Shown: positions 18,468 through 24,582 of the stretch, one piece after another
How positions within the stretch are numbered: the first letter of the stretch is position 1
How the letters are laid out: every line of letters starts with the position of its first letter
Assembly: GCF_000758885.1 (NCBI RefSeq)
Contig: NZ_JRNB01000001.1
Span: 1-64,000, forward strand
Source of the DNA: Peptostreptococcus sp. MV1
GTDB lineage: Bacteria; Bacillota; Clostridia; Peptostreptococcales; Peptostreptococcaceae
Direction of reading: 5' to 3'
DNA: 64,000 nucleotides
Program-made: the position numbers and the translations under genes
The notes under the pieces: model-generated
The model's input: the letters and a program-made list of their open reading frames with translations, nothing else
Told to the model about the DNA's origin: nothing
Databases searched by the model: none

Positions 18468-21400
18468 ATGGAGAAGGTCTATAATTTAGGGATAGATATT
18501 GGCTCCACAACAGTTAAAGCAGTTGTATTGTCAGAAGATAATTCAATATTATATAAGGAATATAGAAGGCACTTTTCTGATGTAAAAAAGGCAGTTGGTG
18601 ACCAATTAAGAGATATCTTCAAGAAAATAGGTAATATCAGTGTAAGGTCAGTTATAACAGGATCGGGTGGTATAGGTCTATCAAAGAAGATAGGTATAAA
18701 ATTTGAACAGGAGGTTATCTCCAGTACAAAATCTATAGAACACTATAATCCAGACACAGATGTAGTTATAGAACTTGGTGGAGAAGATGCAAAAGTTACC
18801 TTCCTATCAGGAGGTATTGACCAGAGAATGAATGGTATCTGTGCAGGCGGTACAGGAGCTTTTATTGACCAGATGGCATCTCTGTTAAAGACAGATGCTG
18901 CAGGTCTAAATGAGCTTGCTAAAAATTTCAAGGTAATATATCCTATCGCTTCAAGGTGTGGTGTATTTGCAAAGACAGATATACAACCCCTTATAAATGA
19001 TGGAGCCAGCAAGTCAGACATAGCCATGAGTATATTCAATGCAGTTGTCGTGCAAACAGTCAGCGTTTTGTCCTGTGGTAGAAAAATAGAGGGAAATGTA
19101 GCCTTTTTAGGTGGCCCCCTATACTTTTTGTCAGAGTTGAGAAGGCAGTTTGCAAACGTCTTGAAATTGGAAGATAAAAACATTATTTTCCCTGAAAATG
19201 CCCAACTATATGTGGCAATGGGGGCAGCACTTTTGGCGTCAAATGAAAGAGTATATTCTATCAAAGAATTAATAGATATGGTTGAAGGAGTGGATAGCCT
19301 TGAAGATGCAAATAATGATGAAATAATACCATTATTTGAGGATGACAAGGACTATGATGATTTCAAGGCTAGACATGCCAAGGCCTGTGTAAAAAGAGAT
19401 ACTATAGAAAATTATCAGGGGAACTGTTTCTTTGGTATCGATGCTGGTTCAACTACTACCAAGGCTGTCCTAATAGGTGACCAAGGACAAATACTATATT
19501 CGCATTATGGTAGCAATGAGGGAAGTCCCCTAGATATGAGTATTAAAATACTAAAGGATATATATTCTAAGCTACCACAAGGATGTTCTATCACTAGGGC
19601 TACTGTGACGGGCTATGGTGAAGAGCTGATAAAGAAGGCCCTTAGGATAGATGAAGGTGAAATAGAGACTATTGCCCACTACAAGGCTGCCAAGTTCTTT
19701 GATCCTGAGGTGGATTTTATACTCGATATAGGTGGCCAAGACATGAAGTGCCTAAAGATAAAGGATGGGGTAATTGACCAGATTATCTTAAATGAAGCCT
19801 GTTCTTCCGGCTGTGGTTCCTTCCTTGAGTCATTTTCAAAGTCCCTACATATGGATATAGTTGATTTTTCAAAGGTGGGAGTAGAGTCGGAAAATCCGGT
19901 GGACCTAGGTTCTAGGTGTACTGTATTTATGAATTCCAGGGTCAAGCAGGCCCAAAAGGAAGGGGCGACAGTAGCAGACATATCTGCAGGTTTGGCATAT
20001 TCAGTAGTGAAAAACGCCCTCTTCAAGGTTATCAAACTAAGAGACGTTGAAGAGCTTGGAAAAAATGTCGTAGTCCAGGGTGGAACATTCTACAATGACC
20101 TAGTCTTGAGGTCTTTTGAAATCTTGACAGGTAGGGAGGTTACTAGACCTGATATAGCAGGGCTAATGGGAGCCTTCGGTTGTGCCTTAATATCTAGAGA
20201 AAAATACAGGGGCATCAGGTCTAATATATTGAATATAGACCAGCTAAACGACATCACAGTTGAGTCAAGTGTAACCAGGTGTAAGGGATGCTCAAATAAG
20301 TGCCTGCTGACTATAAACAAGTTTTCTGAGGCAGAAATATTTGTATCAGGCAATAGGTGTGAGGTTGGTGAGGCAATCTATACACATAAGAAAATACAAA
20401 AAGACAAGAAAAACATAAATATATATAAATATAAGTATGATAGGCTGTTTGACTACAAGTCACTAAGTCCACAGGATGCCAAGAGAGGCATAATCGGTGT
20501 CCCAAGAGTACTGAATATGTATGAAAATTATCCATTTTGGCATACATTTTTAACTCAGCTTGGATTTTCAGTAGTTTTATCGTCAAAGTCCAGCAAGGAT
20601 ATATTTGAAAAGGGCATTAGCTCGATTGCTTCAGATACTGTATGTTACCCAGCCAAGTTAGTTCACGGACATATTGAAGACCTAATAGAAAAGGGAGTAA
20701 AGACAATATTCTACCCTTCTGTTACGCATGAATTTAGGGAAGACCCAGAGTCTGACAACCACTTCAACTGTCCGGTGGTGACATCTTATCCGGAAGTTAT
20801 AAAGAGTAATATGGATTCACTTGAAGAAAACAATATAAAGTATATAAATTTCTTCATAACACTAAACAATAAAAATAAGTTGAAAAAGAGAATATATTCT
20901 GCCATGAAGTATCACTACCCTGATATTAGTCAGGAGGAGATAAACAAGGCTATTGATATGGCGACAAGAGAGTATGACCTATTCAAGGCCCAGGTGAGAC
21001 AAAAAGGTGAAGAAGCAGTATCCTATCTAGAGGAAAATAACCTAAAGGGCATAGTCCTAGCAGGCAGACCCTACCATTTGGACCCAGAAATCAACCACGG
21101 TATACCTGAATTGATTAACTCCTTGGGCATGGCAGTCCTATCAGAGGATTCTATTTGTCACCTGGCCCACATTGATAGGCCTCTAAGGGTAGTTGACCAG
21201 TGGGTATATCATTCAAGACTATACAAGGCTGCAGAATTCTGTAAAAACCATGACAACCTAGATATGGTCCAGTTAAACTCTTTTGGATGTGGCTTGGATG
21301 CCGTGACAACTGAACAGGTAGAGGATATACTGAGCGAAAAGTCTAAGATACATACCGTTATCAAGATAGATGAGGGCAACAACCTAGGTGCAGCCAAGAT

Positions 21401-22772
21401 AAGGCTGAGGTCCCTAAAGGCAGCTATCAATGAAAGAGAACAAAGTGGTATAAGGCCATCACAACTAGAAGAAAAGAAGGTCCAATACCAAAAGAATACT
21501 CGCTTGAATACCAAGCATACACTTTTGGCACCACAAATGGCACCAATTCAATTCCAGTTTATTGAGAGGGCCATGCAGGATTCAGGGCTCGATCTAGTAA
21601 TATTAAACAACAATTCATCAGAGATAATAGATGAGGGACTAAGATATGTAAACAATGATGCCTGCTATCCAGCCATAATAGTAATTGGTCAATTGATACA
21701 TGCCCTAAAGTCAGGCAAGTACGACCTGGACAATACTACTGTACTTATGACACAGACAGGTGGTGGATGTAGGGCAACCAACTACATCTCCTTTTTGAGA
21801 AAGGCCCTAAAGTCTGCAGGTTTTCCTAATGTACCAGTAGTATCCATCAGTGCCCAGGGTATAGAAGACAATGGATTTAGAGAACAAATCAACATCAAGG
21901 TTATAAACAAGCTGGTAATGGGGGCAGTATACGGAGACCTTTTGATGAAGGTCCTACTGAGGGTAAGACCCTATGAAAGGATACCAGGTAGTGCCAACCA
22001 ACTATATGAAAAATGGTGTCAAAAATGTAAGGACTCACTAAAGGATGCAAGCATTAGGCAGTTTAAGAGAAATATCAAGGACATAGTTTCAGATTTTGAT
22101 AGGCTAGAAATAAGCAATGAAGTAAAACCAAGGGTAGGCCTAGTAGGAGAAATCCTAGTCAAGTTTAGCCCTATAGCCAATAATGACTTGATAGGCATCT
22201 TAGAAAAAGAAGGGGCAGAAGCTGTTGTTCCAGAGTTAATTAATTTCTTTATGGCATGTGCCTATAATAACATCTATAAGTACAAAAACCTAGAAGGATC
22301 TTGGAAGAGTATGATGGCCAGCAAGGCAGTTGTCAAGGTACTAGAAACATATATGGCTACCTATACATCGGCCCTTAAGGCAAGTAAAAGATTTGAACCT
22401 CCTAAGAAGATAGACGACCTAGCAAACTTTACAAAGTCATTTGTATCCCTGGGTAACCAGACAGGTGAAGGCTGGCTATTGCCAGGAGAAATGCTAGAGC
22501 TACTAGAGTCAGGATGTAACAATATCATATGTATGCAGCCATTTGGTTGCCTTCCTAACCATATTATAGGTAAGGGTGTAATCAAGGGAATAAAGAAGGA
22601 ATTTCCTAAGGCAAATATAATCCCAATAGACTATGACGCATCAGCGACATCGGTCAACCAGCTAAATAGGATTAAACTAATGTTGGCTACAGCCTTTAAA
22701 GAAACTAAAAATGGCCAAGATATTATATATGGTTCAAGGTTTAAACCAATTGATTTAAACCTTCATAGATAG
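18468..22772 (+). CDS. Giant 2-hydroxyacyl-CoA dehydratase activase-related protein (BadF/HgdC plus HgdB-like)
   Basis: This is a 1434-residue cytoplasmic protein. ATG 18468 follows GAGGAGG; the in-frame start at 18423 has no ribosome site. It has two consecutive ASKHA activase modules, each beginning with a phosphate-binding loop (GIDIGSTTVK near 7, GIDAGSTTTK near 325) and each keeping both 4Fe-4S ligand motifs (GICAGGTGAF with SRCGVF; NEACSSGCGSF with SRCTVF). The second half begins with a Cys motif (CKGCSNKC) and continues as DUF2229 and HgdB-like dehydratase domains. Known activases use ATP to inject an electron into 2-hydroxyacyl-CoA dehydratases. This fused form is widespread in anaerobes and its substrate is not established. 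No fermentation genes flank it. Length is normal for the fused family. Confidence 0.9.
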   Translation: MEKVYNLGIDIGSTTVKAVVLSEDNSILYKEYRRHFSDVKKAVGDQLRDIFKKIGNISVRSVITGSGGIGLSKKIGIKFEQEVISSTKSIEHYNPDTDVVIELGGEDAKVTFLSGGIDQRMNGICAGGTGAFIDQMASLLKTDAAGLNELAKNFKVIYPIASRCGVFAKTDIQPLINDGASKSDIAMSIFNAVVVQTVSVLSCGRKIEGNVAFLGGPLYFLSELRRQFANVLKLEDKNIIFPENAQLYVAMGAALLASNERVYSIKELIDMVEGVDSLEDANNDEIIPLFEDDKDYDDFKARHAKACVKRDTIENYQGNCFFGIDAGSTTTKAVLIGDQGQILYSHYGSNEGSPLDMSIKILKDIYSKLPQGCSITRATVTGYGEELIKKALRIDEGEIETIAHYKAAKFFDPEVDFILDIGGQDMKCLKIKDGVIDQIILNEACSSGCGSFLESFSKSLHMDIVDFSKVGVESENPVDLGSRCTVFMNSRVKQAQKEGATVADISAGLAYSVVKNALFKVIKLRDVEELGKNVVVQGGTFYNDLVLRSFEILTGREVTRPDIAGLMGAFGCALISREKYRGIRSNILNIDQLNDITVESSVTRCKGCSNKCLLTINKFSEAEIFVSGNRCEVGEAIYTHKKIQKDKKNINIYKYKYDRLFDYKSLSPQDAKRGIIGVPRVLNMYENYPFWHTFLTQLGFSVVLSSKSSKDIFEKGISSIASDTVCYPAKLVHGHIEDLIEKGVKTIFYPSVTHEFREDPESDNHFNCPVVTSYPEVIKSNMDSLEENNIKYINFFITLNNKNKLKKRIYSAMKYHYPDISQEEINKAIDMATREYDLFKAQVRQKGEEAVSYLEENNLKGIVLAGRPYHLDPEINHGIPELINSLGMAVLSEDSICHLAHIDRPLRVVDQWVYHSRLYKAAEFCKNHDNLDMVQLNSFGCGLDAVTTEQVEDILSEKSKIHTVIKIDEGNNLGAAKIRLRSLKAAINEREQSGIRPSQLEEKKVQYQKNTRLNTKHTLLAPQMAPIQFQFIERAMQDSGLDLVILNNNSSEIIDEGLRYVNNDACYPAIIVIGQLIHALKSGKYDLDNTTVLMTQTGGGCRATNYISFLRKALKSAGFPNVPVVSISAQGIEDNGFREQINIKVINKLVMGAVYGDLLMKVLLRVRPYERIPGSANQLYEKWCQKCKDSLKDASIRQFKRNIKDIVSDFDRLEISNEVKPRVGLVGEILVKFSPIANNDLIGILEKEGAEAVVPELINFFMACAYNNIYKYKNLEGSWKSMMASKAVVKVLETYMATYTSALKASKRFEPPKKIDDLANFTKSFVSLGNQTGEGWLLPGEMLELLESGCNNIICMQPFGCLPNHIIGKGVIKGIKKEFPKANIIPIDYDASATSVNQLNRIKLMLATAFKETKNGQDIIYGSRFKPIDLNLHR

Positions 22773-22778
22773 TATAAT

Positions 22779-22814
22779 ATAAGTACTCTATTATAGATAG
22801 GGTACTTATTTTTT
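22779..22814 (+). terminator. Rho-independent terminator after the activase gene
   Basis: An 11-bp stem pairs ATAAGTACTCT (22779-22789) with AGGGTACTTAT (22799-22809) with one wobble, followed by six T. The next gene's ribosome site begins immediately after it. Confidence 0.85.
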
Positions 22815-22830
22815 GGAAGGAGTTAAAATA

Positions 22831-24156
22831 TTGGATATAAGTAATGAAGCTTTCGTCTCCCTATATGATGATAACTATATAAACGAAGATCTAATAATAT
22901 ACCAAGGTAGGTTTTATATATATGGAACTTATGACATTAAATGTCAGGGTACTATCTATTACAAGATAACCGACCCAGTATCAATAAATTTCAAGGCACG
23001 TGTATATAAATACGATACCATATCAGACTACATAGATGATCTATCCATGGAAGAAATATCCTTGGAAATACCAGGCTACAAGATTATAAACGCCGAGATA
23101 GTACAAACATCAAACGGCGAAATCTATGGCTATGTCAATGACATTATAATCAAGTCAAAGGATACAGATGTAGACTATGCCCAGTTCGATATAATAAATA
23201 TGGATAAGATACCTGGCAAGCTGGCAAAACTAGGTTACTTGGTATATGCTGCTAGGATAGAATTTGAGGTAAATGACTATACAATTGTCATAGATAAAAA
23301 CTATAAGTACAACAAGGAAATGCATAACAACTTGGTGTCAAAAAGTGGTAGCATAATAACACATACAGGTAGGATTTATAAAAAAGATGCTAGTCGGGTC
23401 AAGACAAAAAAGCTAAGGAATATTTTAAACAACCTATCAACGGCCCTATCTTTTTCCTGTGGCAGATATATAAATATAATTAATGCACATGGATATCTAG
23501 ATGGAAAGGAAAGCTACAGGGAATGGTGTAAGAACTATTCATCGGACTACAGGTTTGTATTTAACTGGACATCCACAATATCCAACTACTACAATATAGA
23601 GAAATACCTATCATTGATGTGTAAAAAACTAGAGGATTCATACTATAGTGGGGCTATAACCAATACACTAGACTGGTACCTAGAATCGCTAAATGGAAAC
23701 AATATCGACAATAATATTATTTCTATACAGACAGCGTTAGAAATGTTATCATACGTAGTCTTAGTTGAAATGAAGGAGGTATATTCAAGACAAGAATATG
23801 ATAGTCATCCCGCTAATCAAAATATCAGAAGACTTCTGAAAGAATGTATGTTAGATACTAGCATATCAAAAATAGATCAATTTTCCATGGAACTAAAAAA
23901 CAGTTTTAATGATGGAGTTGACCTGATTACCTACTACAGAAACTCTGTAGTTCACCCTAGCAAGTCAAAACAGGGCAACAAGTTGGTATTTGAAGATATG
24001 TGGAATACAACGCTTCTAGGCATAAACTACATCGAACTGGTAATACTCTACCTGATAAACTACAGGGGTGAATATACAGATAGGTTCAAAGATATTAGTT
24101 TTGGTCAGGTGAACTTGGTACCTTGGGCAAGGAGCCAAACTTCTAAAACAAGATAG
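22831..24156 (+). CDS. Uncharacterised protein with a C-terminal HEPN-type RNxxxH motif
   Basis: The product is 441 residues. TTG 22831 is chosen because AAGGAG at 22817-22822 stands 8 bases upstream; the frame from 22813 would run through that site. Residues 1-200 are beta-rich (YQGRFYIYGTYDIK and similar). Residues ~200-430 are helical and contain RNSVVH (Arg370-His375), which fits the R-x4-6-H signature of HEPN ribonucleases, in the context YYRNSVVHPSKSK. The architecture, a beta N-terminal domain followed by a HEPN helical bundle, resembles ApeA-like HEPN proteins tied to phage defence and other RNA-cutting systems. It has no antitoxin or nuclease partner beside it. RNase activity is an inference from the motif; the family is not certain. 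Confidence 0.7.
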   Translation: MDISNEAFVSLYDDNYINEDLIIYQGRFYIYGTYDIKCQGTIYYKITDPVSINFKARVYKYDTISDYIDDLSMEEISLEIPGYKIINAEIVQTSNGEIYGYVNDIIIKSKDTDVDYAQFDIINMDKIPGKLAKLGYLVYAARIEFEVNDYTIVIDKNYKYNKEMHNNLVSKSGSIITHTGRIYKKDASRVKTKKLRNILNNLSTALSFSCGRYINIINAHGYLDGKESYREWCKNYSSDYRFVFNWTSTISNYYNIEKYLSLMCKKLEDSYYSGAITNTLDWYLESLNGNNIDNNIISIQTALEMLSYVVLVEMKEVYSRQEYDSHPANQNIRRLLKECMLDTSISKIDQFSMELKNSFNDGVDLITYYRNSVVHPSKSKQGNKLVFEDMWNTTLLGINYIELVILYLINYRGEYTDRFKDISFGQVNLVPWARSQTSKTR

Positions 24157-24287: not shown

Positions 24288-24582
24288 AACAAGTAAAGAA
24301 ACCACAAAACTAAAGACTTTGACTAGAAATAGTAGGTATATGAAGTTAATCAGAGAGTTGCTGGTTGGTGAGAAGCACATTACAGATTATATTGAACACA
24401 TCTATGAGTTGGATACCGAAATTAAAGTAGGCTATCACGTGAACACACGTTACAGTGTTAGAGTATTATATAGTACTCGATGAGGTTACTATTGTGAGAT
24501 AGTAACGAATAGAGGTGGGAACACGAAGTATTGGATTTTATACTCTCGTCCTCTGGCAGACGTCAGGGCACGGGAGTTTTTT
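24288..24582 (+). ncRNA. T-box leader (tRNA-sensing riboswitch) for an amino-acid ABC transporter
   Basis: Stem I carries the distal conserved AGAGAG and GGTTGGTGAGAAGC elements (24353-24375). GGTAT and ATACC close the upper helix, followed by GAA and a candidate specifier ATT at 24421-24423, then AAAGTAGG. Stem III is a perfect GTTACTAT/ATAGTAAC hairpin (24485-24492, 24499-24506). The T-box sequence is AGAGGTGGGAACACG (24511-24525). The terminator is at 24542-24582. Uncharged tRNA binding would favour the antiterminator and switch on the genes at 24647-26788. By alignment the specifier reads Ile (AUU), but the variable base after TGG is G, which would pair with C73 (typical of tRNA-His); the amino acid is therefore uncertain. 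Confidence 0.88.
24542..24582 (+). terminator. T-box regulatory terminator
   Basis: ACTCTCGTCCTCTG (24542-24555) pairs with CAGGGCACGGGAGT (24564-24577) with two wobbles and one mismatch, followed by a T run. It competes with the antiterminator formed by the T-box sequence. Confidence 0.88.

What the first reader, a model, noticed from the sequence alone, without database searches (positions are those of the whole stretch)
22831..24156. Orphan HEPN-motif protein: possible new RNase or defence protein
The C-terminal helical region has YRNSVVHPS, which fits the R-x4-6-H catalytic motif of HEPN RNases, behind a beta-rich ~200-residue domain without recognised family. The layout resembles ApeA-like phage-defence proteins but no partner, antitoxin or mobile context is present. 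It sits behind a terminator of a metabolic gene.
Basis: partly seen in the sequence, partly recalled or inferred. Interest (0 to 1): 0.6.

Follow-up and report, generated by a model that had tools for sequence, protein, structure and literature searches.

The report
Core-genome HEPN ribonuclease of Peptostreptococcaceae
A gene of unknown function encodes a likely RNA-cutting enzyme related to phage-defence proteins that elsewhere ride on plasmids, prophages and restriction islands, but in this bacterial family it was acquired once and has become a permanent, strongly conserved chromosomal gene.

Summary
ORF 22831-24156 is a real 441-aa gene, and YRNSVVHPS is where stated. The Rx4-6H pattern alone is weak (45% of shuffled copies have one). 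However, R370, N371, H375 and the acidic E304 are invariant in 53 of 53 orthologues and in seven distant relatives. Twenty of 24 orthologues weakly match Pfam HEPN_Apea, and a predicted model of the C-terminal half finds HEPN structures as its best PDB matches. The protein is a full-length homologue of YopA of Bacillus phage SPbeta (profile E 5e-51). It is a remote sister of ApeA (E 1.5e-7 over residues 169-414) but fails both ApeA Pfam cut-offs. The main new point is context. Distant relatives are rare and lie on prophages, plasmids or restriction-type islands. In this family the gene is single-copy in 56 of 71 genomes and 16 of 23 genera, with conserved neighbours, dN/dS about 0.01-0.12, every multi-genome genus monophyletic, and carriers forming one clade on an independent gene. 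That fits one capture followed by vertical inheritance. Best reading: a YopA/ApeA-type HEPN RNase fixed in the core genome, probably conditionally activated. Whether it still acts against phages is untested. The HEPN call is supported; the defence role is not shown.

The parts
22831..24156 (+). YopA-family HEPN protein gene, 441 aa, TTG start
22831..23568 (+). N-terminal beta-rich region (residues 1-246), proposed sensor or regulatory part; no curated family passes its cut-off
   Evidence: strands in a low-confidence model; no Pfam match over cut-off
23359..23364 (+). T177-H178 (ITHxG), invariant in orthologues and YopA-like relatives; ITQ in the aligned first member and consensus of the ApeA profile
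23569..24063 (+). C-terminal HEPN-like helical domain (about residues 247-411)
23740..23742 (+). E304 (ALE motif), conserved acidic residue in the helix before the motif, as in many HEPN families
   Evidence: PMC3710099
23938..23955 (+). Catalytic-type motif R370-N-S-V-V-H375 at a helix end
22817..22822 (+). Shine-Dalgarno AAGGAG, 8 nt before the TTG start
   Evidence: read directly from the sequence
22779..22809 (+). Intrinsic terminator of the upstream CoA-dehydratase activase gene, directly before the Shine-Dalgarno
22750..22778 (+). Possible own promoter TTGATT-17-TATAAT (weak; the scan finds as many in shuffled sequence)
18468..22772 (+). Conserved upstream neighbour: BadF/BcrA-type ATPase plus DUF2229 (2-hydroxyacyl-CoA dehydratase activase-like)
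24310..24556 (+). T-box leader of the downstream amino-acid ABC transporter; bounds the gene on its 3' side

Best explanation
The gene encodes a metal-independent HEPN endoribonuclease of the YopA group, a sister group of ApeA. Shown by sequence evidence: the family assignment, the invariant R370/N371/H375/E304 set, a HEPN-like C-terminal fold, and a history of one acquisition followed by vertical retention under purifying selection. Inferred: two subunits pair through the C-terminal domains so that the RNxxxH motifs form one RNA-cleaving groove; the beta-rich N-terminal region keeps the enzyme off and responds to a trigger (a phage protein or an internal stress signal); activation cuts host or phage RNA and stops growth. 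The simplest scenario is a former mobile defence effector turned into a permanent, stand-alone chromosomal sentinel in this lineage.
For: HEPN. Relation to YopA. Relation to ApeA: with a reversed-profile control at 0.2-0.8% probability. Mobile or defence-type context of relatives. Fixation. Own extended -10 promoter (TGnTATAAT) upstream in 29 of 53 orthologues against 2% of shuffles. Functional precedent: Tha-1, a single-protein prophage HEPN defence RNase with motif RNSIMH, an N-terminal part of no recognised family, and activation by phage tail protein (PMC11087260); it aligns in register with ours only weakly.
Against: No activity, toxicity or trigger has been shown. Fixation in all well-assembled genomes of the carrier genera, and no defence genes beside it, are unlike typical phage-defence genes, which are patchy. 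Pfam HEPN_Apea stays below its cut-off and Foldseek E-values are above 0.1. The full-length model is poor (pLDDT 45). No dimer could be modelled.
Confidence: 0.6

Rival explanations
1. It is a housekeeping RNase: a captured HEPN enzyme now used for a fixed cellular task (processing or turnover of a specific RNA), no longer for defence.
For: Single copy in 56 of 71 genomes of the family; the two carrier-genus exceptions are a contig break (G016) and a 75%-complete genome. Low dN/dS, conserved locus, own promoter-like sequence in 29 of 53 orthologues.
Against: The N-terminal region evolves about as slowly as the rest (56% against 63% identity), so a simple processing enzyme is not the only fit; no RNA partner or RNA-processing gene is linked; seven genera of the same family lack it, so the task is not universal.
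Confidence: 0.25
2. It is an ordinary phage-defence gene (ApeA-like abortive infection) that happens to be common in this family by repeated horizontal transfer.
For: Remote homology to ApeA; relatives in restriction islands and prophages.
Against: Every genus with more than one genome is one clade, and the 16 label changes on the tree are the least possible; carriers form one clade (support 100) on a neighbouring marker gene that non-carriers also have; distances track that gene (Mantel 1 of 5000).
Confidence: 0.1
3. HEPN-fold protein without catalysis: an RNA-binding or structural protein.
For: Some HEPN families are inactive (PMC3710099); no biochemistry exists here.
Against: R370, N371, H375 and E304 are invariant in 53 of 53 orthologues and in the distant relatives.
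Confidence: 0.05

Closest known systems
YopA of Bacillus phage SPbeta (SPBc2) and 'YopA family protein' in E. coli RefSeq
   Same: Homologous over the full length (26.7% identity, 98% coverage, E 5e-36; profile E 5e-51), same ITH and RNxxVHP motifs
   Different: YopA lies in a prophage beside a helix-turn-helix gene and a RES-domain gene; the E. coli copies lie with tandem recombinases, type I restriction-modification and GmrSD genes. This lineage has neither partners nor mobile context and fixed the gene
ApeA (PF18862 + PF18739; PADLOC Cas13-ApeA / PDC-S58)
   Same: Beta-rich N-terminal region followed by HEPN; remote homology over residues 169-414 with the catalytic motif in register
   Different: No ApeA_NTD1 match; HEPN_Apea below cut-off (16.9-20.2 against 24.4 bits); no PADLOC match
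Tha-1 of Staphylococcus phage 80alpha
   Same: Single-protein HEPN RNase with an RNSxxH motif and an N-terminal part of no recognised family (PMC11087260)
   Different: 301 aa, prophage-borne; only a weak profile match (9.6% probability)
PrrC/RloC and other HEPN proteins linked to restriction-modification
   Same: Restriction-linked HEPN RNases (PMC3710099), like the E. coli and cyanobacterial relatives here
   Different: ABC-ATPase fusions, absent here

Membership tests
HEPN superfamily RNase | Conserved Rx4-6H with a polar residue after R | tested here: met
   RNxxxH in 53 of 53 orthologues and in distant relatives
[quoted passage not shown]
   C-terminal model pLDDT 68, pTM 0.69; motif at the end of the helix at residues 362-374, E304 in the helix at 292-314; best PDB matches are HEPN proteins, though with weak E-values
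HEPN superfamily RNase | Dimer with a shared active site and RNase activity | not testable with these tools
   no complex modelling or biochemistry available
YopA-like group | Full-length homology to SPbeta YopA including the N-terminal region | tested here: met
ApeA | ApeA_NTD1 (PF18862) N-terminal domain | tested here: not met
   no match up to E 10, whereas 9 of 9 plasmid ApeA sequences match
ApeA | HEPN_Apea (PF18739) above its gathering score | tested here: not met
   16.9 bits in the protein, 20.2 in the genome search, cut-off 24.4
ApeA | Homology of the C-terminal half to ApeA | tested here: met
   profile-profile probability 93.9%, E 1.5e-7; reversed control 0.2%
Anti-phage defence gene | Patchy distribution in defence islands or mobile elements | tested here: not met
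   core, syntenic and vertically inherited in this family; met for the distant relatives
HEPN-MNT toxin-antitoxin | Adjacent MNT antitoxin gene | tested here: not met
   neighbours are a CoA-dehydratase activase and a T-box/ABC transporter

The most novel reading that the evidence does not exclude
A mobile phage-defence HEPN RNase was captured once by the ancestor of the crown Peptostreptococcaceae and turned into an indispensable or near-indispensable core RNase with a new regulatory or stress role, a bacterial case of domestication of a defence effector.
Probability: 0.3. Interest if true: 0.7.

Novelty: new variant of a known kind. Interest (0 to 1): 0.45.

Why it matters
Defence RNases are usually gained and lost quickly. 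One kept intact, with its active site invariant, through the crown of a whole bacterial family suggests either permanent innate immunity encoded in the core genome or conversion of a defence enzyme to a cellular job. Both can be tested with a deletion and an H375A mutant. It also gives the uncharacterised YopA family a predicted activity.

Tried and rejected
No relative found in IMG/VR with the family profile. The PRC-barrel and MrkH/YcgR Pfam matches occur in one member each and were treated as chance. Foldseek on the low-confidence full-length model gave EF-Tu and PCNA and a few PilZ-domain alignments; not used, and no RxxxR PilZ motif occurs in residues 1-180. The small helix-turn-helix proteins next to SPbeta yopA and the E. 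coli gene are not alike, so a conserved partner was rejected. Absence in G016 was first read as loss, but its contig ends before the locus. Raw Rx4-6H as proof was rejected. The viral fold search gave no informative named match. The PDB sequence search with the family profile gave nothing. C. difficile AbiF literature was judged unrelated from its title and abstract; not tested by sequence.

Full report
OBSERVATION. The ORF at 22831-24156 (TTG start, Shine-Dalgarno at 22817-22822) is real, 441 aa, with the motif R370-NSVV-H375. A random Rx4-6H is common: 45% of shuffled versions of the protein contain at least one, and 1.6% contain RNx3H. The case therefore rests on conservation.

CONSERVATION AND FOLD. 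In 53 orthologues from 53 genomes, R370, N371, H375, E304, T177, H178, W282 and Y283 never vary, although the three regions of the protein average 56-63% pairwise identity. Pfam HEPN_Apea is hit below its cut-off in the window protein (16.9 of 24.4 bits) and at E up to 1 in 20 of 24 members (best 5e-4). R370 is near the end of one helix and H375 follows it. The best PDB matches are HEPN proteins: 4nqf (probability 0.89), 2hsb (0.66), Csm6' (0.84), Csx1-Crn2 (0.54); none has a strong E-value. The HEPN description in PMC3710099 (motif at the end of helix 3, acidic residue in helix 2) fits. The full-length model is poor (pLDDT 45), so the N-terminal fold is not known.

RELATIVES. tblastn finds YopA of SPBc2 over 98% of the length (E 5e-36) and weaker relatives on plasmids. 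Profile comparison with seven such relatives gives probability 100% and E 5e-51 over 421 columns. A merged profile of both groups matches nine plasmid ApeA proteins at 93.9% probability, E 1.5e-7, over residues 169-414 with the catalytic motif in register; a reversed-profile control gives 0.2% (the planned column-shuffle control in that script failed to run). The family is thus YopA-type and a remote sister of ApeA, not ApeA by curated cut-offs.

CONTEXT OF DISTANT RELATIVES. SPbeta prophage beside a helix-turn-helix gene and a RES-domain gene. E. coli: between tandem recombinases and a type I restriction-modification/GmrSD set at uvrA-ssb, in 19 of 5426 genomes counting partial matches. Nostoc and Planktothrix plasmids: between a type IIG-like methyltransferase and a SNF2 helicase best matching HKD+Snf2, then DrmD. 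Oscillatoria, Crinalium and Methylophaga: plasmids with integrase genes nearby. In the phylum sample only 3 of 397 other genomes match, one of them beside what reads as a tyrosine recombinase. This is a mobile, defence-type pattern.

CONTEXT IN THIS FAMILY. The gene is found in 56 of 71 genomes and 16 of 23 genera of the window's family and in none of the roughly 180 genomes of other families in the order sample. Within carrier genera the only exceptions are G031 (75% complete) and G016, whose contig starts 174 bases before the downstream neighbour and so ends before the locus. In 15 of 22 loci inspected, a gene of the CoA-dehydratase activase cluster lies upstream, and in 11 the amino-acid ABC transporter lies downstream (domains); in the window the latter has a T-box. 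Every genus with more than one genome is monophyletic and the ingroup is separated from the YopA-like sequences with support 99 (the outgroup branches are long). Close pairs show dN/dS 0.01-0.12. On the tree of the neighbouring activase, which some non-carrier genera also have, the carriers sampled form one clade with support 100. Distances of the two genes correlate (r 0.56, Mantel 1 of 5000); the two genes are linked in these loci, so this shows shared inheritance of the locus. An extended -10 promoter (TGnTATAAT) lies upstream in 29 of 53 orthologues against 2% of shuffles. In the window itself a terminator abuts the Shine-Dalgarno and only a weak promoter is visible.

MECHANISM. Shown: family, residues, history. 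Inferred: dimeric RNA cleavage at RNxxxH, held off by the N-terminal region until triggered. Tha-1 is a worked precedent for a lone HEPN protein triggered by phage tail protein (PMC11087260), although its homology to this family is only weak. Fixation and purifying selection leave open a housekeeping role, which I rate at 0.25.

LITERATURE. Searches for YopA of SPbeta, and for 'YopA family protein', found no functional paper in the held library. PMC3710099 lists ApeA as a HEPN family that in epsilonproteobacteria is embedded in restriction-modification operons. NCBI already names some E. coli relatives 'YopA family protein', so the sequence family itself is recognised, while no NCBIfam or Pfam model in the copies used here matches YopA.

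LIMITS. Only four or five sequences were permitted for structure prediction. No dimer could be modelled. The YopA-like comparison set is small (seven), and its contexts come mainly from plasmid and phage collections, which favours mobile settings; the phylum sample is the less biased check.

Noticed in passing
L058:1304-9571 and L059:2301-12174: Cyanobacterial plasmid operons: type IIG-like methyltransferase, small protein, YopA-like HEPN protein, then SNF2 helicase best matching PADLOC HKD+Snf2 and DrmD models; possibly an undescribed restriction or DISARM-like system.
   Followed up: partly
L069, L070 (E. coli chromosomes, uvrA/ssb1 site): Element with tandem recombinases, a YopA-family gene, an HTH-like protein, type I restriction-modification and two DUF262/GmrSD genes; also on an IncY plasmid (L056).
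   Followed up: partly
24310-24556: T-box leader (Rfam RF00230, 113 bits) ahead of an amino-acid ABC transporter.
   Followed up: no
L101 (G054 contig C10): Second copy of the locus with the activase, ABC transporter and HEPN genes broken by frameshifts on a 12-kb contig; probably a poor or contaminant contig.
   Followed up: partly
22750-22831: A 14-bp terminator hairpin abuts the Shine-Dalgarno and overlaps the expected transcript start of the only promoter-like site.
   Followed up: no
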